DNA of 64,000 nt from Neotamlana nanhaiensis (GTDB lineage: Bacteria; Bacteroidota; Bacteroidia; Flavobacteriales; Flavobacteriaceae): NCBI RefSeq assembly GCF_000943555.1, contig NZ_JTDV01000015.1, positions 62,001 through 126,000 on the forward strand, written 5' to 3'. The notes beneath the pieces are model-generated. The model saw only the letters and a list, made by a program, of their open reading frames with translations, was not told the DNA's origin and did not search any database. This document shows, in pieces, positions 30,783 to 39,990 of this stretch. Position 1 is the stretch's first letter. Every line of letters begins with the position of its first letter. The position numbers were made by a program, and so were the translations under genes.

Positions 30783-32399
30783 TTAAGTTATTAAATCCTC
30801 ATTTTGGGGATTTATAGGATGGATAACAGGTTCATCTGCGGCTAATTTTGTTTCATATAAAAAGTCGTTAGCAAAAAAGTGAAGCATTTCTGGGCTTAGT
30901 AGTTTTTTTCGTTGGGCTTTCCAATTATTTACCGTGTCATTTCCGTACATGTAGTTTACCAGTCCGTTATATGCCCAATTACTGCCTTTTCCCCAGTGTT
31001 GTGTAAATTTGATGTTGTTTTGTTTTAAAACTTCAATAATTCGGGTGCAGTACGCTTCAAAACTCATTATTTTTCGTGTTTTTTTCCAGAGAACACCATC
31101 AATTTCGAGCATGCAAGTAACCGGGAACTTTGTAAAACCTAAGGTCGCTTTGGTTTGTTTTACAAATCGCATTGCAAAAATACCAGGTATTGGCCCTTCT
31201 TTGGTGGTTAAATCGCATAATAGTTTTAATGCTTTTGATGAGTCGGTATAATCAATGCCTACCGAACAAGCAAAAGCACCACCTTGGTATGGCGCATCCC
31301 AAAATATTTCGGGTAAGGTACCTGTTAAATCCTCATCAACTTTTGGTAAAATAGATTTTTCCAACCGTTTTATTAACCACGGAATACTCTTTGGCCAGTT
31401 TTCGGCCATTTTTGTAAATAAATGAATCAAATCCATGTATAACGATTGTTTAATTATGGGAAACGGATCTTTATAATCGTTTTTATACGCGTTTTTATAC
31501 ATAAGTTCTACCACATATTCTGGTTCATCGCTGTATTGATTTATAAATACTTTGTAATGGTATGGTGTTTTGCCAAATCCGTCGGGTGTGGTTTCTTCGG
31601 GGATTTTAAAAGGTGAATTTTTAAAGTCTAATGTATCGGCAAGTTGTAATGCAACATTTTTGTCTATTTTCCTAACGTAGCGATTTAGTAAAAATCGGGG
31701 TTCGGCTTCAATAACAACGCCATGAATAAATCCGAAGCTACCTAAACCAACCAAAGCGGCATAAAACATGGCATCGTCTCGAATTATTTTTTTTGAAATT
31801 GATTGTGCAAACGCATCATTTAATCCTGCTTTACTTTCGGGTTCAATATAAACGTTGTCTTCAATATTTGGCCCAGTAATTAAATGCAAACCAACTACAT
31901 AATCTTGCACAGAACCTACTTGAAAAGCCGAACCATGAACCCCCGTTGATATACAACCAGCAATAGTTTGCCCGTTACTAGCACCCGATGTTTTTAGTGA
32001 TTTTCCGTGAGATGATAGCACCTCAGAAATTCGTTTTATGGTTGTGCCACATTGAAAAAGGAATAGGTTTTCGGCTTTAAATGTGGTGTCACTATGTAAA
32101 TTTTCGGGTTGTATAGGCATATGAATATTCATAAAGCCATTGTAATGCATACAATCTTTATGATGCGCAATGTGATTTAAAGACCATGCCGAACCGTAAG
32201 CACGAAAGCCTTGGTTGGCATTAAAAGTTTCCTTAATTAAACGCTGAATTTCTACAACCGCATCGTTATATCTATCTATTTTTTTGGGGATTATACCATC
32301 GCCTTCTAACTCGGTAATGTAAAGTTTTTTTAATTTGAAAGGCCCGTTATTATGTAAGGTGTCCCAGTGTTTTAAATGGTGAGTTTTTGTTGTTGCCAT
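30783..32399 (-). CDS. FAD-binding oxidoreductase of the VAO/ALO family
   Basis: A 538-residue flavoprotein. The PCMH-type FAD domain is visible from about 50 to 220: FRAYGSAWSLNHIA, LFLFQCGTTIKRISEVL, and SLKTSGASNGQTIAGCISTG followed by VHGS, whose His is a possible covalent FAD site. The C-terminal half resembles sugar-lactone or cholesterol-oxidase-like members (HWGKGSNWAYNGLVNYMYG near the end). No signal peptide is present. It starts 4 bp after the small lipoprotein gene and belongs to the minus-strand cluster with the CHAT/hydrolase protein. The substrate is unknown; aldonolactone, polyol and sterol oxidases share this architecture. Confidence 0.82.
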   Translation of the reverse strand: MATTKTHHLKHWDTLHNNGPFKLKKLYITELEGDGIIPKKIDRYNDAVVEIQRLIKETFNANQGFRAYGSAWSLNHIAHHKDCMHYNGFMNIHMPIQPENLHSDTTFKAENLFLFQCGTTIKRISEVLSSHGKSLKTSGASNGQTIAGCISTGVHGSAFQVGSVQDYVVGLHLITGPNIEDNVYIEPESKAGLNDAFAQSISKKIIRDDAMFYAALVGLGSFGFIHGVVIEAEPRFLLNRYVRKIDKNVALQLADTLDFKNSPFKIPEETTPDGFGKTPYHYKVFINQYSDEPEYVVELMYKNAYKNDYKDPFPIIKQSLYMDLIHLFTKMAENWPKSIPWLIKRLEKSILPKVDEDLTGTLPEIFWDAPYQGGAFACSVGIDYTDSSKALKLLCDLTTKEGPIPGIFAMRFVKQTKATLGFTKFPVTCMLEIDGVLWKKTRKIMSFEAYCTRIIEVLKQNNIKFTQHWGKGSNWAYNGLVNYMYGNDTVNNWKAQRKKLLSPEMLHFFANDFLYETKLAADEPVIHPINPQNEDLIT

Positions 32400-32403
32400 A
32401 ATA

Positions 32404-32754
32404 TTAATTTGTAGGTTTCATGCATACGTATTTAACTTTAAGCTTGCGTTTTTTTCCAAATGAAAATACACTTAAAAGGGAACCGCCAAAGGTGTTTTTA
32501 AATTCTACGGTATGTAGTTTTCCCGATTTGCAAGCCTCGGTTTCTTTTATTAAATAGGTGAAGTCTTTTGATACTACATCAATTTTAATAACGGTATCGA
32601 GTTCTACAACTTCCATACCCCGATAATAATCATCGCGCGATAATAACGGGTCGGGTTGATAAGCACCATTTATACTTCTTAAACGTACTGAATAGCACGA
32701 ACTAAGCAATAAACTGATGATAATTAATGTGAAGATTTTAATTGAATTTTTCAT
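32404..32754 (-). CDS. Small lipoprotein, function unknown
   Basis: A 116-residue protein with a clear lipoprotein signal: hydrophobic segment, then LLLSSC with Cys19. The mature part (about 98 residues) is beta-rich with no recognised motif; two further Cys are present (ACKSGK and the C-terminal VCMKP). It lies between the L,D-transpeptidase-like protein (21 bp) and the FAD oxidoreductase (4 bp), so it is part of the same transcript. It is the only cluster member with an export signal. An envelope partner or immunity role is conceivable by position only. Confidence 0.75.
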   Translation of the reverse strand: MKNSIKIFTLIIISLLLSSCYSVRLRSINGAYQPDPLLSRDDYYRGMEVVELDTVIKIDVVSKDFTYLIKETEACKSGKLHTVEFKNTFGGSLLSVFSFGKKRKLKVKYVCMKPTN

Positions 32755-32775
32755 GGGGTTTGGTTTTTTATGGTT

Positions 32776-34008
32776 TTAAACCGATTGAAGCTTCGCGAAA
32801 ATTTTTGAAGCATAATCGCTTCCAAACTCCGAAGATAAATCGAGTGATTCCTCACGACCTAGCGTGTAATATAGCGTTGTAACTTGCGGTGGTGCGTAAC
32901 AAAGCACCAAATCGGTAAATACATTGTAGGCGCCTTTAGTTTGTTTTTTTGAATTGGTTAAACCGCCGTAGCTTGTTGATGCGAAACTGGAGCAGTCTTG
33001 CAAATCGTTGTTATGGTTTATATAGCTTTTTCCAGCAATTACTTGGCATCCGGCCGAAAAATTGGAGCTACCTACACCTGTCCAATGTATGTTTATGCCT
33101 GGGTTTACTTGAAGCCCTTTTAACCGACCTTGGCTATCGGTTACTTTTAAATCGTTATTGGTTAGTGAATTATCGTTGTCCCAATCGCGAAGTATCATTA
33201 CGCCCTTGGGATTTTCTGGTTTTAAAGCACGATAAATTTTACTTTCGTTTGTTATTTTGTGCCAACCAAATCTATACCTGTGTTGTCCTTCAATTAAAAA
33301 GGCTTCATCGTTTCGTTGCGCCATGTTAACACTTGGGTCTGTTGAGCCCCAAAATGTAAAAACCATACCGTTTATTAATAAAAAGAAAACATCATCATTG
33401 TTGCGTCGTGTTGTACTTGTAGTTTGATTTCTACGGACGCCAATTAAATGGATTTTATCTGGGCTAAAATCCCAATCTTGTGGTTTTAAAGTAGCATAGG
33501 TGTTGTTAAGCGTGTTTAATTCACTTAAAATAGGTCCAGGATTTGCCGAATAATGTTGTTTCGCTTTGTTTAATAAATTTATCCAACGGGTATACTCTGG
33601 CGTTGGATTATTTTTAAAATTGCCCCAAACCGATGTAATTCCATTGGTTTTCCATCTATTTATATGTTCCATAGTTCCCGAACCTACAATGCCATCGGGT
33701 ACCATATCGCTAACATGTTCAATGGTGCGAACATATTCTTGAAATAGTCGTACTGCAGCCTGCGTTACATAACCAAAAACTCCATTAAAATCGTTGCGAG
33801 GCATAAAACCTGCATCAAACAAAAATTGTTGCAATTCTAAAACCGGGTTGCCATCTACTGTTCTAAACGATCGCCATTTGGTACGGTCGTCGTCGCGAAA
33901 CGATACTTTACCAACTAAAATGCCATCCATATGGTATGGTTTTAAGTAAGTTTCTCTACTCGAGGGGCGTTTGCCCGCATCGCAGCTTCCTAAGTATAAT
34001 GTGGCCAT
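32776..34008 (-). CDS. Peptidoglycan-binding domain protein with L,D-transpeptidase-like C-terminal domain
   Basis: A 410-residue protein without a signal peptide. Residues about 55-118 form a PG_binding_1-like domain (LELQQFLFDAGF, NDFNGVFGYVTQAAVRLFQEY, DGIVGSGTMEHI). The C-terminal part (about 180-400) is beta-rich and contains INIHWTGVGSSNFSAGCQVI with His308, Ser318 and Cys321. This spacing resembles the H...SxGC active site of YkuD/L,D-transpeptidase folds and of some phage-type wall proteins. It follows the 1806-residue CHAT protein by 6 bp. Wall binding without a Sec signal implies either another export route or use after lysis. Catalysis is inferred from one motif. Confidence 0.72.
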   Translation of the reverse strand: MATLYLGSCDAGKRPSSRETYLKPYHMDGILVGKVSFRDDDRTKWRSFRTVDGNPVLELQQFLFDAGFMPRNDFNGVFGYVTQAAVRLFQEYVRTIEHVSDMVPDGIVGSGTMEHINRWKTNGITSVWGNFKNNPTPEYTRWINLLNKAKQHYSANPGPILSELNTLNNTYATLKPQDWDFSPDKIHLIGVRRNQTTSTTRRNNDDVFFLLINGMVFTFWGSTDPSVNMAQRNDEAFLIEGQHRYRFGWHKITNESKIYRALKPENPKGVMILRDWDNDNSLTNNDLKVTDSQGRLKGLQVNPGINIHWTGVGSSNFSAGCQVIAGKSYINHNNDLQDCSSFASTSYGGLTNSKKQTKGAYNVFTDLVLCYAPPQVTTLYYTLGREESLDLSSEFGSDYASKIFAKLQSV

Positions 34009-34014
34009 GGCGTG

Positions 34015-37000
34015 TTATTTAATTTTCTTATTTAATTCTTCTAAAATAAACTCTAAACTCGCCTTAACTTGTTCGCTCTTAGTGTAGTTTAAAAGGAAAT
34101 TTATTTGTTCAATTTCAACTTTTATATATCTTGGACTGTATAGTAGATTAAAAATTTCTTTATACCATTTTAGTATAATTTGGTCGAGTTGTGCTTTATT
34201 ATTGTTTGAAAGCATCAGGCGCGCATAACTAATTTCGGTCATTCCAAACAGTACCGAAATATCAACATCAGCTTTATCAAAATCGTCTAAACGTTGGTAG
34301 TATTCTTCAAGGAATTTATCTAAACTGGCAATTTTACTAAACGCTCGGTTTTGGCTTAGTAAATCCATTAAAGTGAATTCGGTTTTTAAGGTTTCAAAAT
34401 CGGAGTTTTCAGGAAATAATTGGCTGTTTATTAAGGCATCTTTAAAGGTGTTTGTGCCTTTACGATGCTCTAAACAATAGGCAATAAACACCATATTTGA
34501 AAAGGCATCGAGGTATTTGCCATCGTATTTGTCTTTCGAAATATTTAATGCTTGCTCATAAAGTTTATAAGCTTCAAACAAATGCTGTAGTTCCTCCGTC
34601 TTATCAAAATAAGGCGCAGTTTGTTTGTAAGCGTTGGCTACAATATTTAGCCTCGTGGTATTTCTTCCGGCTAAGGTTAATAATTTTATTTCTGAAATAT
34701 ATTCATTTATATACGCCGATATTTTACTATCCCCTTTTTTAAGATTTAAATCGACTATTTTATTTTTAAGAATAACCGATTGTACCAAACAATATTGCTC
34801 TAAGGCTTTAATGGAGAAGTTGCCATTATCGAAAACAAAAAGCTCTTTATATTTTTCGTAAGCAAGATCGGAATGTCCTAATTCATCATAAATTAAGGCT
34901 TCTTTTTCTAAAACAGTGGCATCAATTAAGTTAGATTCTTGAGTTTTATCTAAAATATCGTTTAGTTTGTCAATAGCGGCATCGTTGGTTACATTTTTAT
35001 CGCGAACGGCAATGAGTAAATTATCTAAATCGGTGTAAGCCTGTGAGGCAATAATGTACTTTTGATTATTTTTTTTCGATTTGCTACTGTTTCTAAATTT
35101 ATAGTATTGATTGCCATAGCATTGATATGCGCCCCAAGTATTCGATCCAGAATGGTTGTTATGGCAAGCCATTCGCGCTTTTTGTACCGCATCGCCAAAG
35201 TTGTAACCTTCAAACATTTTTTTGTAAAAGGTTTCGGCAAAAGTTCTTGCGGCAGCATCATCAACGGGCCAACCCGTAATAATTATGGCTTTTACGCCCA
35301 TTTCAATAAGTTGTGTGCCAATATTTGCGGCTAGTTTAAATCGGTTTTTGCTATAACTATCATCTTCGGCATCTAAAACACCCGAAAAACAACAGTTTAT
35401 AAAAATAAATTCTGGAACATAGCCAATTTGGTTTATTACAGCCGGATCGATGCAAAGTCCGTTACCAATAGCAATACCAACATTTTCGTCTTCAGGGTTA
35501 TACACGCCATGTCCAGCAAAATGCATGATTTTATAGGGCTTGCTAAATAGCTCCATCATAATATGTTTTGCGTTGGAATTTATTAATGGGTTTACGCGAT
35601 AAGCTTCTTTTTTAAACTTGTAAATTACCCAAATAGCTTCTTCTTTAGCGGCAGGTAATGGTAATAATCCAGGTGTGTTATAAATAGGGTCGCCAACTAC
35701 AAAAACATCATGGTTGTTTAACGAAACGGGCGTGTTTGGGCTACCATCTTGAGTGATTAATTGTCTAATAAACCCAGTATTTACCGAAGCTGGTTTGTCG
35801 GTAGTGGTGCTGTCGAACAACAATTCCCAAGGTATTTGCGCTGCGTATTTATCGAGTTTTAAAATAACGTTATTTTGATCTCTAAAAATGTTTTTAAAAT
35901 CGTTTGGAATGAGCATTTCGAATAAGGTTTTCGATAAGCGCTCGTCCCAAACATAAGTGGTAGACATTTCTTCTAACAGATATAAAATTTTAGATAGTTT
36001 TATGCCTATTTTTTCTTCGTCTACACGGGCCAATTTATTTGATGAGAAATATTTAAACCCATTTATTTTTGAAGATTTTGTTGTATCTATAATACTGCCG
36101 ATGTGTAAATTGTACCACCAATTGTAGTCGTTGTTTCTAAACTGATTGCGTTTTTTGGCACCAGCACGCCTTACAATATTGGGTTGTAAATTGAAGGCCA
36201 CCCGATTGTCTGATTCCTGTAATCGGTATAAACTTAAATAGGCTTCACTAGATACTGATTCGTAATAATTTATAAACTCAATATCTTTAATTTGTTTTAA
36301 GCCTTCGCCAGTTTCCTTAATTTGTTTATTAGCTTTCGCAACACCAAGTAAAATTCCTTTTACAGAGTCTTCCACAGGCAATTTACCGTAACCAATGGCC
36401 ATTAAAACAAACGAAATTCCAGTGGCATATTCTTTTGCTTCAGGTAACGTATAATTGTCGCGCATAAACATAGCGTATTTTAAAACAGCTTGCTTAACCG
36501 ATTTTGAGAGTAGGAATGGTGTAACGGTATCGGCATTACCTAAACCACAAACTATGGCGCCCTTTGGTTGTGTTTTTAAATTGAAGAATACTTCGCTTTC
36601 GCCAATTTTTCCAGGATAATAGCCAATATTCATACGTTGTGAAAGGCGATCATCAAGATATTTGTCAAGTGCTTTTTCCGAGCTTAAAATTAAATCCATA
36701 AAGAAATGCCCAACCATAACGGGGTAGAAGGCCACTTTTAAATCGGCATGTACAACACGAACGTTAAAACTATCTACTTCTGGTTCAACTTCTTTTTTAA
36801 TGTCGAAAATTCCGCTTAATACTGCGGCTTCGTTGTAAATTGGTTCTGGAGTTTCATAAACTTCGGTTATTATTTCACCACTGCGCATTCCAGAACGATC
36901 GTTACTTAATAGGTTAGTGCTACCAGTGTTTAAAATTTCGGAAACACCTTTAAAAATATAAGTTTCGTTTGCTAAATCGCCATGAGATGTATGGCTGTAA

Positions 37001-39435
37001 AAGATTTTTTGAGAATTAAGAAGTTGTTTTGGTATTCCAGTTTCCCAAGTTACACTACCATCGCCATGTGAGGTTGCTTCGTAAACTAATTTTTTGTTTT
37101 TCGATAAGAAGCGGTTTTTAAATTTATAATCGAAAACAGTTTCTTTGGCAAGCCCGCAAACGTAATAAACATTATTTAAATCTTTGGGTTGTAAATTATT
37201 AGTGAATGCTATAATTTTTTCGCGATAGGCTTTAAAATGGGCTAATTCTTCTTTAAAATCGTCGGGATTGGGCATGTGTTTTAAATCGGTAATGTCATTT
37301 AAGTTTTTCCAAAATTTTGGATCCCAAAACGGACGGTTTTCACTTTCCTCGATGGGTAAAAGTTCGAAAACACCTGGGTATTTCCAGAAAATTTTAAGTA
37401 AATCGGCACGGTCGTTTTTTATATCGATGGCGGCCAGTTGTTTTACTCTGCGACTATGGCCAGTTAGTACTTCCATAATAAGGTACGAGCCCAACCATGG
37501 CGTACCAAGCATTACAAATTTATTGAAGGTATTTAGTTTAAAATTTCCCCAAACCTCGGGAAAATCCATTATTAATTGGCGTACCACTAAACCACCCATG
37601 GAATGCGCCACAATATGCGTTTTTATATTTTTAGTTTTTAAAACTTCCTCAAGTTCTTTTTTTAGATTTTTTGCGGCTTCAGTTAACGATTTTCGCCAAT
37701 CGAATTCAAAGGTTATAACGTCGTATTCGTTTTGTAAATGTTCGGCAAAATCGTTGTAAAAGTCTTTAATAACTCCATTAGCTTTAACTTTAGGTTTATT
37801 AATTTTTAAATTATCAACAATGCCACCATCAAATATTTTTTTCATATTAACCCATTGGTGCTCATTGTTTTGAGATAACGACGATCCCATAATTCCAGGA
37901 ATTACAATAACAACATCTTTGGTAATATCTTTAACTTTATAGGAAACACCATCCATAGAAAAAGTATTGAGTAACACACCGCGGTTTCCTTGTGTGTACA
38001 AACTTTTAGTAAATAATGACGACGGATTATCGCTGCTTGCTTTTAAGGCGTCTATAACAGCATTGCTGGAATTGTTGGCCGAAAAGTAGTTGAAATGGCT
38101 GGTGTTACCACCTTTTGCTAAAAATTTGTACATGCCGTTTGTGCGTGTTACACCGTGCATCATACGGTTAGTATCTACAACCAAATCGTTGGCGCCTTGA
38201 TAAAATAAATTCGCTAAAATTACTTTTAAGGAGTGTAAGTTTAAACCAGAAATATCGGAATCGCCTGCAATAGTATACAGTTCGCTTTCTACAGTTGTTG
38301 CCGAAATATTCATCATTTTTTGAAATAATGATTCGGGCATCATACTATTTAAACCAGGTAAAACTTCGGGGTTATCTTTGTGACTAATAATATCTAATAG
38401 GAAGGCTTTTAGGCTGTGGTAAAACGGATTTGTAATACCAAAAGCCATAGATGCTGCGTTTAAAATTAGGTTGAAATAATGGTCTGTGCGTCTTGATAAA
38501 ATTGTAGTACCCGATGCGGGGGCAGCAACTCTAACTACTTTGTTTACTTTTAGTTTTTTGGTTTTGGCTAGTCTGTTAATTTCGGCCATTAATTCCCTAT
38601 TAGTCTTTTCTTCAGGAGTTTTTAAAATGGCAATTTCGCTGTCGTGAAAACCGGTAACCTGATTACGATAATCGCATTTTGCTAAAATATCTGCTACCAA
38701 GCCGCCTCGGGAATGACTTATAATATCGATAGTGCAGTTTTTGGGACAGTCGTTTAAAAAATCTAAGGCATTTTGCAACGGACTTACAGAAAGGGTATGA
38801 TGCTCTAAAGCCCAAATTCTATCGCCATAAAGCTCAACCAAATTTTGCCATGCGCCATTGTTACTGTTTAGTTTTTGAAAGGCATCAAAGGTTGTAGATA
38901 AAGTGCCGTGAATAAATAATAAATGTGTTTTAGTATCAACTTCTTTTTGGTTAAACTTTATTTTATTGAAATTTTTATCTAATTGAAATAGCCCAATTTT
39001 TGGTTGAATTTTTTTATCGTAAGCCTCAGCCAAGGCCAACAAGGTCTTTTCTTTTAGCTTGTTAACTTTATCTGGAGTAAATACACTAAAAACTTTAACG
39101 ATAGCACGATTAATGAAACCGCGATTATTTTCGGAAGTGATGTGGATATTAAAAATATAGTCTTCTTCGGCTAAAGCCCGCTGACTTTGAGTTTTTTTGT
39201 CGTAAATATCTTGAACATCTTCTGGATGCCCAATCCATTCGGTATTATCAGAAAATTGAAGAGCAATTAAGTCGTTTTCTTCTAATTCAACGGTTTGTTC
39301 CTTGTTTTCAGACCGTGTTGTAGAAACTTCAATGTAACTTTTTAGCTTAAAATTTTGTTGAAGTGTTTCGGGAATTTTAAAGTCAATATTGTCAACTTCA
39401 ATTTTATGTCCTTTTACTTTAGCTGTTTTGGTCAT
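34015..39435 (-). CDS. Giant CHAT-domain protein with two alpha/beta-hydrolase modules
   Basis: An 1806-residue multidomain protein without a signal peptide. From residue 1: a short beta-rich region; hydrolase module one (LLFIHGTLS at 172-180, Ser242 in SHSRGG, RVAAPASGT near 302); hydrolase module two, LCAT/lipase-like (VIPGIMGSSL at 511-520, Ser612 in AHSMGG, GDGSV at 791-795 and a following His as probable triad partners). A region at about 890-1060 with KGAIVCGLG resembles the N-terminal domain of leucyl aminopeptidases. The CHAT caspase-like domain at about 1195-1450 has His1309 (HFAGHG) and Cys1348/1349 (NCCFSG). A helical repeat tail runs to the end. ATG 39435 is preferred; an in-frame ATG at 39492 would add 19 unlikely residues. 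It is the first gene of the cluster. Function unknown. Confidence 0.85.
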   Translation of the reverse strand: MTKTAKVKGHKIEVDNIDFKIPETLQQNFKLKSYIEVSTTRSENKEQTVELEENDLIALQFSDNTEWIGHPEDVQDIYDKKTQSQRALAEEDYIFNIHITSENNRGFINRAIVKVFSVFTPDKVNKLKEKTLLALAEAYDKKIQPKIGLFQLDKNFNKIKFNQKEVDTKTHLLFIHGTLSTTFDAFQKLNSNNGAWQNLVELYGDRIWALEHHTLSVSPLQNALDFLNDCPKNCTIDIISHSRGGLVADILAKCDYRNQVTGFHDSEIAILKTPEEKTNRELMAEINRLAKTKKLKVNKVVRVAAPASGTTILSRRTDHYFNLILNAASMAFGITNPFYHSLKAFLLDIISHKDNPEVLPGLNSMMPESLFQKMMNISATTVESELYTIAGDSDISGLNLHSLKVILANLFYQGANDLVVDTNRMMHGVTRTNGMYKFLAKGGNTSHFNYFSANNSSNAVIDALKASSDNPSSLFTKSLYTQGNRGVLLNTFSMDGVSYKVKDITKDVVIVIPGIMGSSLSQNNEHQWVNMKKIFDGGIVDNLKINKPKVKANGVIKDFYNDFAEHLQNEYDVITFEFDWRKSLTEAAKNLKKELEEVLKTKNIKTHIVAHSMGGLVVRQLIMDFPEVWGNFKLNTFNKFVMLGTPWLGSYLIMEVLTGHSRRVKQLAAIDIKNDRADLLKIFWKYPGVFELLPIEESENRPFWDPKFWKNLNDITDLKHMPNPDDFKEELAHFKAYREKIIAFTNNLQPKDLNNVYYVCGLAKETVFDYKFKNRFLSKNKKLVYEATSHGDGSVTWETGIPKQLLNSQKIFYSHTSHGDLANETYIFKGVSEILNTGSTNLLSNDRSGMRSGEIITEVYETPEPIYNEAAVLSGIFDIKKEVEPEVDSFNVRVVHADLKVAFYPVMVGHFFMDLILSSEKALDKYLDDRLSQRMNIGYYPGKIGESEVFFNLKTQPKGAIVCGLGNADTVTPFLLSKSVKQAVLKYAMFMRDNYTLPEAKEYATGISFVLMAIGYGKLPVEDSVKGILLGVAKANKQIKETGEGLKQIKDIEFINYYESVSSEAYLSLYRLQESDNRVAFNLQPNIVRRAGAKKRNQFRNNDYNWWYNLHIGSIIDTTKSSKINGFKYFSSNKLARVDEEKIGIKLSKILYLLEEMSTTYVWDERLSKTLFEMLIPNDFKNIFRDQNNVILKLDKYAAQIPWELLFDSTTTDKPASVNTGFIRQLITQDGSPNTPVSLNNHDVFVVGDPIYNTPGLLPLPAAKEEAIWVIYKFKKEAYRVNPLINSNAKHIMMELFSKPYKIMHFAGHGVYNPEDENVGIAIGNGLCIDPAVINQIGYVPEFIFINCCFSGVLDAEDDSYSKNRFKLAANIGTQLIEMGVKAIIITGWPVDDAAARTFAETFYKKMFEGYNFGDAVQKARMACHNNHSGSNTWGAYQCYGNQYYKFRNSSKSKKNNQKYIIASQAYTDLDNLLIAVRDKNVTNDAAIDKLNDILDKTQESNLIDATVLEKEALIYDELGHSDLAYEKYKELFVFDNGNFSIKALEQYCLVQSVILKNKIVDLNLKKGDSKISAYINEYISEIKLLTLAGRNTTRLNIVANAYKQTAPYFDKTEELQHLFEAYKLYEQALNISKDKYDGKYLDAFSNMVFIAYCLEHRKGTNTFKDALINSQLFPENSDFETLKTEFTLMDLLSQNRAFSKIASLDKFLEEYYQRLDDFDKADVDISVLFGMTEISYARLMLSNNNKAQLDQIILKWYKEIFNLLYSPRYIKVEIEQINFLLNYTKSEQVKASLEFILEELNKKIK

Positions 39436-39768: not shown

Positions 39769-39990
39769 TTAAGGTACAGGGTCGTAACCCGAATCACCCC
39801 AAGGATGGCATTTACCAATGCGTTTTAGGGCGAGCCAACCACCTTTAAATAAGCCGTGTTTTGTTAATGCTTTTTTTGCGTAATGAGAACAAGTTGGTTG
39901 AAATCTACAGGTTGCAGGTAGTAAAGGTGACAAAAACATTTGATAAACCTTTATTAAAAATAAAAATGGTGCAATAAGTAGTTTTTTCAT
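39769..39990 (-). CDS. yidD: Membrane protein insertion efficiency factor YidD
   Basis: A 73-residue peripheral membrane protein that aids YidC/SecYEG insertion. The family core [19 protein letters not shown] and [13 protein letters not shown]-like end ([15 protein letters not shown]) are both present. An amphipathic N-terminal helix (about 1-22) would attach it to the inner face of the membrane. It is not next to rnpA or yidC as in many other phyla but precedes nothing obvious; cysS lies 85 bp further on the same strand. Length and motifs are complete. Confidence 0.95.

What the first reader, a model, noticed from the sequence alone, without database searches (positions are those of the whole stretch)
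34015..39435. 1806-residue fusion of two lipase-like modules, a leucyl-aminopeptidase-like domain and a CHAT caspase-like domain
Two separate Ser nucleophile motifs (SHSRGG at 242, AHSMGG at 612) and a His/Cys pair (1309, 1348/1349) are all intact and the helical tail could sense a partner. A protein that could cut lipids (or esters) and proteins is an unusual combination, and it carries no export signal. Caspase-like CHAT proteins in other bacteria act in cell-death or defence pathways, so a suicide or anti-phage role is worth testing.
Basis: partly seen in the sequence, partly recalled or inferred. Interest (0 to 1): 0.85.

Follow-up and report, generated by a model that had tools for sequence, protein, structure and literature searches.

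The report
Sensor-gated protease carrying two lipases
A bacterium carries one giant protein that joins two fat-cutting enzymes, a caspase-like protein-cutter and two probable signal-sensing modules; its relatives are patchily spread and often sit beside immune-type genes, so it is probably a self-destruct or anti-virus device of an unusual build.

Summary
Window 34015-39435 (minus strand) encodes 1806 aa: two lipase-fold hydrolases (the second closest to lysosomal phospholipase A2), a macrodomain-fold module, a CHAT (separase-like) protease and an ASK1-like TPR tail. The "leucyl-aminopeptidase-like" part resembles only the non-catalytic M17 N-domain. Both Ser-Asp-His sets and the CHAT His/Cys are intact in 71 of 72 full-length members.

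It is not housekeeping: 10 of 199 genomes of its family, 5 of 395 of its phylum and 2 of 4 of its genus carry it; at the site in the two genus members without it, the four-gene cassette is missing between conserved flanks. Metacaspase genes lie near 15 of 80 relatives and TIR genes near 9, one ThsB-like and 3 bp downstream. In the window's family the partner is a leaderless endolysin-like protein, found in 7 of 199 genomes, all carriers.

Best reading: a sensor-gated protease-lipase effector of self-destruction or defence. Death, defence and the signal are inferred. The window genome shows no TIR_2 match, so this is not Thoeris. A new variant of known caspase/hydrolase conflict systems.

The parts
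34015..39435 (-). 1806-aa hydrolase-hydrolase-macro-CHAT-TPR polyprotein
37996..38940 (-). lipase-like alpha/beta-hydrolase 1 (about residues 166-480; DUF7379)
   Evidence: Pfam DUF7379 2.2e-37, 53 of 53 rows of A2; fold: lin2722 Z 17.2, T1-type lipases about Z 16
38710..38712 (-). Ser242 codon, nucleophile of hydrolase 1
   Evidence: S in 72 of 72, codon TCC
38185..38187 (-). Asp417 codon, probable acid of hydrolase 1
   Evidence: D in 72 of 72
38095..38097 (-). His447 codon, probable base of hydrolase 1
   Evidence: H in 72 of 72
36886..37923 (-). LCAT/phospholipase-A2-like alpha/beta-hydrolase 2 (about residues 505-850)
   Evidence: Pfam LCAT 2.8e-14, 52 of 53 rows of A2; fold: lysosomal phospholipase A2 Z 27.2, 297 residues, rmsd 2.9
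37600..37602 (-). Ser612 codon, nucleophile of hydrolase 2
   Evidence: S in 71 of 72, Gly in L074; this motif was also one of the two scan patterns
37060..37062 (-). Asp792 codon, probable acid of hydrolase 2
   Evidence: D in 72 of 72
36982..36984 (-). His818 codon, probable base of hydrolase 2
   Evidence: H in 72 of 72
36217..36777 (-). macrodomain-fold / M17-N-like module (about residues 887-1073), probable sensor, not a peptidase
   Evidence: macroH2A1.1 Z 16.7, leucyl aminopeptidase N-domain Z 15.9; Pfam M17_N in 3 of 53 rows of A3
35101..35940 (-). CHAT caspase-like protease domain (about residues 1166-1445)
   Evidence: Pfam CHAT 5e-19, 53 of 53 rows of A3; separase Z 21.8, Craspase TPR-CHAT Z 19.1
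35509..35511 (-). His1309 codon of the CHAT dyad
   Evidence: H in 72 of 72
35389..35391 (-). Cys1349 codon, the likely CHAT nucleophile
   Evidence: C in 72 of 72, while neighbouring Cys1348 is Ala in one (L056)
34018..35052 (-). TPR-S / ASK1-like helical tail (about residues 1462-1806), among the fastest-evolving parts
   Evidence: TPR-S E 3.8e-4, below cut-off, in the window protein but in 48 of 53 rows of A3 at E <= 0.001; ASK1 5ulm Z 18.8, 267 residues, rmsd 3.8; low pairwise identity
32776..34008 (-). PG410: leaderless 410-aa peptidoglycan-binding, endolysin-like partner, ATG 6 bp after the stop of the big gene
   Evidence: PG_binding_1 1e-6; PHROG: unknown family 1.3e-7, endolysin 1.7e-5 and 3.1e-5; 7 of 199 family genomes, all among the 10 with the big gene
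32404..32754 (-). 116-aa probable lipoprotein of the cassette
   Evidence: same place in three genomes; hydrophobic N-terminus; lipobox-like Cys by eye
30783..32399 (-). 538-aa FAD-binding oxidoreductase of the cassette, probably a passenger
   Evidence: FAD_binding_4 1.3e-6; in 23 of 199 family genomes at E <= 1e-60, 17 of them without the big gene

Best explanation
It is a cytosolic, normally silent executioner of a self-destruct/defence (biological-conflict) system. A trigger reaches the sensor half (macrodomain-like module and ASK1-like TPR-S tail; probably a nucleotide or NAD-derived signal, or a partner protein). This activates the CHAT protease, which cuts itself and/or partner proteins. 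Release unleashes the two lipase-like hydrolases on the cell's own membrane. In the window's clade the damaged membrane lets the leaderless, endolysin-like PG410 reach the cell wall, so the cell lyses. In other bacteria the same core is wired to a TIR NADase upstream in the pathway or a metacaspase downstream of it. Shown: module order, predicted folds, intact catalytic residues, patchy block-like inheritance, co-occurrence with PG410, TIR and metacaspase neighbours of relatives. Inferred: activation by a signal, protease-before-lipase order, lysis, defence.
For: All eight catalytic residues kept in 71 of 72 members. Macro, CHAT and ASK1-like folds and a phospholipase-like fold. Tail evolves fast (mean pairwise identity 0.24 for TPR-S and 0.18 for the last part, against 0.36-0.44 for hydrolases, macro-like module and CHAT). 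Patchy: 10 of 199, 5 of 395, 2 of 4 genomes, the window's own included; four-gene cassette absent at the site in two sister species with conserved flanks. PG410 in 7 of 199 family genomes and 3 of 395 phylum genomes, all carriers, Fisher p 5e-11 for the family sample, relatedness ignored, even when unlinked (G039, G190, G368). Metacaspases within 1.5 kb in 15 of 80 loci against 3 hits in the 4.6-times larger far flank; TIR 10 hits in 9 loci against 2. ThsB-like TIR (3.8e-22) 3 bp downstream in Aquimarina. Precedents: caspase plus alpha/beta-hydrolase in VMAP systems (PMC7159879); N7-cADPR activates a caspase-like protease and His-ADPR a macro effector in Thoeris (stated in PMC12847820).
Against: No TIR_2 match in the window's own genome. 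On the tree the TIR and metacaspase neighbours lie outside the window's clade. Ligand binding by the macro-like module is untested, and by sequence it is nearer to M17_N, not known to me as a messenger receptor. No good PADLOC hit among five window proteins. In six Aequorivita-type loci plus G039, and in three of four Algoriphagus, the gene shares its neighbours with the others, as an ordinary inherited gene would. No phage among 50,697 records has it, and only 8 of 72,556 plasmids do at E <= 1e-20. Beyond caspase (11 of 93) and a SAVED_TIR model (3 of 93), the defence models shown (25 of 66) hit only one or two of 93 neighbours each.
Confidence: 0.5

Rival explanations
1. A controlled lysis or stress-response machine that is not about phages: for example developmental or quorum-linked autolysis, DNA release or envelope-damage response, using the same sensor-protease-lipase-endolysin chain.
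For: Lipases plus a leaderless endolysin-like partner fit lysis as such; stable place in some genera; no good PADLOC match among five window proteins.
Against: Patchy distribution and cassette-like presence/absence; TIR/ThsB-like and metacaspase company elsewhere; plasmid copy by restriction-modification genes.
Confidence: 0.25
2. A Thoeris-like system proper: an ADP-ribose-type messenger from a TIR NADase binds the macro-like module and switches on the CHAT protease and lipases.
For: TIR neighbours in 9 of 80 loci against 2 far hits, ThsB-like TIR 3 bp downstream in L051; DUF4062 beside L101, a family reported to be TIR-like NADases (PMC13174449, start of abstract and passages); partners in L077 and L039 with TPR-S and a TIR-type PADLOC match.
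Against: No TIR_2 match in the window genome; 71 of the 80 loci have no TIR hit within 1.5 kb, though some flanks are short; ligand binding untested.
Confidence: 0.25
3. An effector delivered into rival cells by a type VI or extracellular contractile injection system.
For: Phospholipase (Tle4-like, Z 22.1) plus peptidoglycan enzyme is a classic effector pair (recalled); an eCIS_core protein lies 294 bp downstream in L041; one of 93 neighbours is Tle1-like, by its sequence probably the one beside L110.
Against: The window genome and its genus mate G173 have no eCIS_core match; 6 of 10 carriers against 5 of 20 non-carriers that I picked, p 0.11. 1806 aa with two sensor-like modules is unlike a payload (judgement). 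Type VI genes and immunity genes were not searched for.
Confidence: 0.1
4. A housekeeping enzyme of lipid or protein turnover, or a degenerate fusion without activity.
For: Found on genome contigs, one full copy in each of the 10 family carriers.
Against: Rare and patchy; all eight catalytic residues kept in 71 of 72.
Confidence: 0.04

Closest known systems
VMAP MoxR-vWA ternary conflict systems (Kaur et al. 2020, PMC7159879)
   Same: Caspase-superfamily protease always paired with an alpha/beta-hydrolase
   Different: There the hydrolase is a neighbouring gene and MoxR, vWA and VMAP genes are the core; here everything is one polypeptide and none of seven scanned neighbours is MoxR or vWA
Thoeris type IV and type II (as described in PMC12847820)
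   Same: TIR-made ADP-ribose signals switch on a caspase-like protease or a macro-domain effector; some relatives here sit beside TIR/ThsB-like genes
   Different: No TIR_2 match in the window genome; the effector here adds two lipase-like hydrolases and a TPR-S tail
Craspase TPR-CHAT (Csx29) and SAVED-CHAT of type III CRISPR
   Same: CHAT fold: Craspase and Csx29 chains Z 16.8-19.1; SAVED-CHAT 8tl0 Z 18.7 but rmsd 12.2
   Different: No SAVED match in Pfam and only a weak PADLOC one over the CHAT part; the TPR part lies behind, not before, the CHAT domain; lipases added. CRISPR loci were not searched for
EACC2/EACC1 caspase systems (PMC8195603, passages)
   Same: Constant caspase with variable sensor/effector domains, macro domains included
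   Different: No such domain was listed by Pfam (whether Pfam holds the model was not checked); architecture here is constant over several phyla
Lysosomal phospholipase A2 / LCAT
   Same: Fold of hydrolase 2 and conserved Ser, Asp, His
   Different: Cytosolic part of a multi-enzyme protein; substrate unknown
TPR-S / ASK1 (MAP3K5) central regulatory region
   Same: C-terminal tail fold, Z 18.8; TPR-S in 48 of 53 rows
   Different: No kinase; ligand unknown. The proposal that TPR-S senses NAD-derived signals is recalled from Burroughs and Aravind 2020, which is not held

Membership tests
CHAT protease family (PF12770) | Pfam match above the curated cut-off | tested here: met
   5e-19, 69.3 bits against 24
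CHAT protease family (PF12770) | conserved His and Cys dyad | tested here: met
   H1309 and C1349 in 72 of 72
CHAT protease family (PF12770) | proteolytic activity | not testable with these tools
   needs an assay
LCAT / group XV phospholipase A2-like hydrolases | fold and conserved Ser, Asp, His | tested here: met
   Pfam 2.8e-14; Z 27.2; S612 71/72, D792 72/72, H818 72/72; geometry not measured
TPR-S (PF20308) | Pfam match above the cut-off | tested here: inconclusive
   window protein 21.4 bits against 27.6; 48 of 53 rows at E <= 0.001
Macrodomain, ADP-ribose binding | macro fold | tested here: met
   macroH2A1.1 Z 16.7, 169 residues, rmsd 2.8
Macrodomain, ADP-ribose binding | binds ADP-ribose or a derivative | not testable with these tools
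   no binding or docking run
M17 leucyl aminopeptidase | M17 catalytic domain with metal ligands | tested here: not met
   no Pfam match to the catalytic domain at E <= 0.1; only the N-domain is resembled
Thoeris | TIR (ThsB) gene in the system | tested here: not met
   no TIR_2 match in the window genome at E <= 0.001 (one TIR model only); met in some relatives
Thoeris | effector gated by an ADP-ribose-type messenger | not testable with these tools
   needs biochemistry
VMAP ternary system | adjacent MoxR and vWA genes | tested here: not met
   seven neighbouring genes between 27001 and 41557 scanned, none matches
Type III CRISPR SAVED-CHAT | SAVED domain | tested here: inconclusive
   PADLOC SAVED_CHAT only at E 0.055, over the CHAT part; no SAVED match in Pfam
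eCIS or T6SS effector | secretion system in the genome | tested here: inconclusive
   no eCIS_core match in the window genome; T6SS not searched

The most novel reading that the evidence does not exclude
A complete bacterial execution chain in one transferable cassette: a signal-gated CHAT protease physically fused to two phospholipase-like enzymes breaches the membrane from inside and thereby admits a leaderless endolysin-like partner to the cell wall. It would be an immune counterpart of the phage holin-endolysin pair, with the same core plugged into TIR (Thoeris-like), metacaspase or other triggers in different phyla.
Probability: 0.22. Interest if true: 0.85.

Novelty: new variant of a known kind. 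Interest (0 to 1): 0.63.

Why it matters
In the bacterial immune systems that I know, caspase-like proteases act through separate effectors. A protein that carries protease, two lipases and two sensor-like modules in one chain, conserved over several phyla and present or absent as a cassette, would show a direct protease-to-membrane death route. It gives a test bed with clear active-site mutants, and a specific partner (PG410) whose role, cell-wall attack or protease substrate, can be tested at once.

Tried and rejected
Leucyl-aminopeptidase activity: rejected, only the non-catalytic macro-like N-domain is there. C1348 as nucleophile: C1349 preferred, since one relative has Ala at 1348 and none varies at 1349. 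FAD oxidoreductase as a functional partner: not supported, 23 of 199 family genomes carry it, 17 without the big gene, unlike PG410. eCIS delivery: weak. Phage carriage: none in 50,697 phage records; six IMG/VR hits match only hydrolase 2, query residues 494-882. Extra trypsin-like domain in the G096 homologue: motif by eye only, no trypsin match in Pfam and Deg-type PDB matches at E 0.72 or worse. Foreign base composition: cassette GC 0.355 against 0.340 for the window, uninformative.

The metacaspase and TIR profiles were built from near neighbours, which favours near hits; one search finds Peptidase_C14 in 13 and TIR_2 in 7 of 93 near proteins with curated models but has no far control. Flanks are uneven: 62 of 80 loci have more than 800 bp upstream, 75 downstream. 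In one search, 18 of the 80 loci were dropped as shorter than 1550 aa, many on short contigs; 62 plus 9 family homologues plus the window make the 72 rows. For A2 and A3, 52 of the 62 relatives were used with the window. For A4, I gave 93 of the 129 neighbours that one search listed, of 220 eligible. Loci are not independent: on starred branches the tree needs at least 4 label changes for metacaspase and 3 for TIR (quick method, short fragments such as L099, L106 and L112 not in it). PG410 and the FAD gene were not searched genome-wide in G580 and G581. Papers: PMC7159879 section 9 read and passages; PMC8195603, PMC12847820 and PMC13174449 passages only, besides the listings; PMC11204291 abstract and outline; Burroughs and Aravind 2020 not held, recalled only. 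No paper describing this exact architecture was seen in the listings, which cover open-licence papers and show only the top rows.

Full report
What is there. The gene runs on the minus strand from 39435 to 34015 and encodes 1806 aa without interruption. The nearest homologues start at the same residue. Pfam finds DUF7379 (2.2e-37) and LCAT (2.8e-14) in the N-terminal half, CHAT (5e-19) in the C-terminal half and a sub-threshold TPR-S (3.8e-4) in the tail. AlphaFold2 models from alignments of 53 sequences gave mean pLDDT 85.4 for residues 1-885 and 84.3 for 880-1806.

Folds. Residues 505-837 match lysosomal phospholipase A2 (Z 27.2, 297 residues, rmsd 2.9) and LCAT, and also Tle4 (Z 22.1); residues 168-470 match lin2722 (Z 17.2) and T1-type lipases (about Z 16). 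Residues 887-1073 match macrodomains (macroH2A1.1 Z 16.7) and the N-terminal domain of leucyl aminopeptidase (Z 15.9); the CHAT region matches separase (Z 21.8, rmsd 3.9), Craspase TPR-CHAT (Z 19.1, rmsd 3.8) and SAVED-CHAT (Z 18.7, but rmsd 12.2); residues 1462-1806 match the ASK1 central regulatory region (Z 18.8, 267 residues, rmsd 3.8). Helical repeats give high Z easily, but an independent sequence family, TPR-S, matches 48 of 53 rows of A3; in the window protein that hit lies at 1582-1639, inside the same tail. M17_N matches 3 of 53.

Catalytic residues. In 72 full-length members, the window protein included: S242 72, D417 72, H447 72; S612 71, D792 72, H818 72; H1309 72, C1348 71, C1349 72. 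All eight (with C1349) stand together in 71 of 72; the exception, L074, has Gly at 612. C1349 is the likely nucleophile. The assignment of D417/H447 and D792/H818 to the triads rests on conservation and on the usual order in alpha/beta-hydrolases (recalled), not on measured distances. Mean pairwise identity is 0.44 for CHAT, 0.39 and 0.36 for the hydrolases, 0.36 for the macro-like module, 0.24 for TPR-S, 0.18 for the last part of the tail, and also low, 0.22-0.23, for the N-terminal extension and the linker. The tail thus evolves fast; the macro-like module is as conserved as the hydrolases.

Distribution (each count includes the window's own genome). 10 of 199 genomes of the family at E <= 1e-10, 5 of 395 of the phylum at E <= 1e-30, 2 of 4 of the genus. 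In the two genus members without it, cysS and the genes from 30271 (one) or 29158 (the other) downwards keep their order, the four genes from 30783 to 39435 are missing at that site, and another 234-aa gene lies there. Relatives reach Bacteroidota, Pseudomonadota, Nitrospirota, Actinomycetota, Planctomycetota, Thermodesulfobacteriota and, as fragments, Acidobacteria. Plasmids: 8 of 72,556 records, one next to a restriction-modification locus with a recombinase. Phages: 0 of 50,697.

Neighbours. In 80 loci with 207 kb of near flank (up to 1.5 kb) and 945 kb of far flank, metacaspase hits are 15 near and 3 far; TIR hits 10 near (9 loci) and 2 far, both in L100; TPR-S partner proteins 3 near and 0 far (binomial p 3e-9 and 2e-6 for the first two, ignoring relatedness and the bias named under Tried and rejected). 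Two of the ten near TIR hits are on the opposite strand (L099, L111), as is one of the 15 metacaspases (L112). Pfam C14 confirmed the three metacaspases tested and lists C14 in 13 of 93 near proteins. TIR domains were confirmed in four genes of three loci, and the one in L051 matches ThsB at 3.8e-22. Partners with TPR-S: L077 and L039 (each with a TIR-type PADLOC match) and L101, fused to a patatin phospholipase. On the tree the metacaspase and TIR labels fall mostly among Pseudomonadota, with one Actinomycetota (L093), one Nitrospirota (L053) and one Bacteroidota (L051, TIR). The window's clade has neither, and its genome has no TIR_2 match.

The window's own partner. PG410 (32776-34008) starts 6 bp after the big gene's stop. 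It has a peptidoglycan-binding domain (1e-6; spore cortex-lytic enzyme 4e-4) and weak endolysin profile matches, no hydrophobic leader, and an invariant INIHW...SAGCQVIAGKSY-type stretch that recalls L,D-transpeptidases (by eye, not tested). In the family sample it is in 7 of 199 genomes, all 7 among the 10 carriers, none among 189 non-carriers (p 5e-11). In the phylum sample 3 of 395, all carriers. In G039, G190 and G368 it is unlinked yet present. Among 39 searched carrier genomes from the genome-contig scan (40 asked, one not held), 8 have it, including a Granulosicoccus (Gammaproteobacteria) where it lies 198 bp away on the other strand. So PG410 seems to need the big gene, but the big gene does not need PG410; beside L045, whose genome lacks PG410, a VanY-type endolysin-like gene stands upstream. 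The FAD oxidoreductase shows no such bond.

Mechanism. Known pieces: caspase domains in VMAP systems always come with a neighbouring alpha/beta-hydrolase (PMC7159879); systems with a constant caspase and variable domains, macro domains included, were proposed to work by auto-proteolysis (PMC8195603); TIR products switch on a caspase-like protease or a macro effector in Thoeris (PMC12847820; PMC11204291 abstract). I therefore infer a sensor-gated protease whose activation frees two membrane-attacking lipases, with lysis completed by PG410. The ADP-ribose-type signal is the likeliest for the TIR-linked relatives and only one option for the window's clade.

Verdict. Real, intact, patchy and unusual. 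I file it as a CHAT-protease conflict effector of new architecture, not as Thoeris, VMAP or M17. Interest is fairly high, but function rests on context.

Noticed in passing
L026:3-1772 and L008 (homologue in G096): This homologue has roughly 400 extra C-terminal residues with a GDSGAAL motif that looks trypsin-like, possibly a further protease in the same chain; no trypsin match in Pfam, PDB Deg-type matches only at E 0.7.
   Followed up: partly
L023:12314-14557 (G168): A KAP-family P-loop NTPase (1.3e-34) follows the big gene on the same strand, a type of gene often seen in conflict systems (recalled).
   Followed up: no
L118:2693-5938 and L116:4187-7471 (Paracoccus plasmids): Large (1081-1094 aa) same-strand proteins directly upstream of the big gene, one overlapping it; the L118 one has no Pfam match at E <= 0.01.
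   Followed up: no
L061:9587-15211 (Azotobacter chroococcum): A second, diverged copy of the big gene (1874 aa) about 2 kb downstream of the first.
   Followed up: no
L087:7923-9278: A clostripain-family (C11) protease stands directly upstream of the big gene in a Geobacter relative, where others have a metacaspase.
   Followed up: no
window 39769-39990, minus strand: A 73-aa YidD-like ORF (named by eye) lies between cysS and the big gene.
   Followed up: no
window 37996-38940, minus strand: PF24096 (DUF7379), found in 53 of 53 rows of A2, looks like an alpha/beta-hydrolase domain with conserved Ser, Asp and His in this family.
   Followed up: partly
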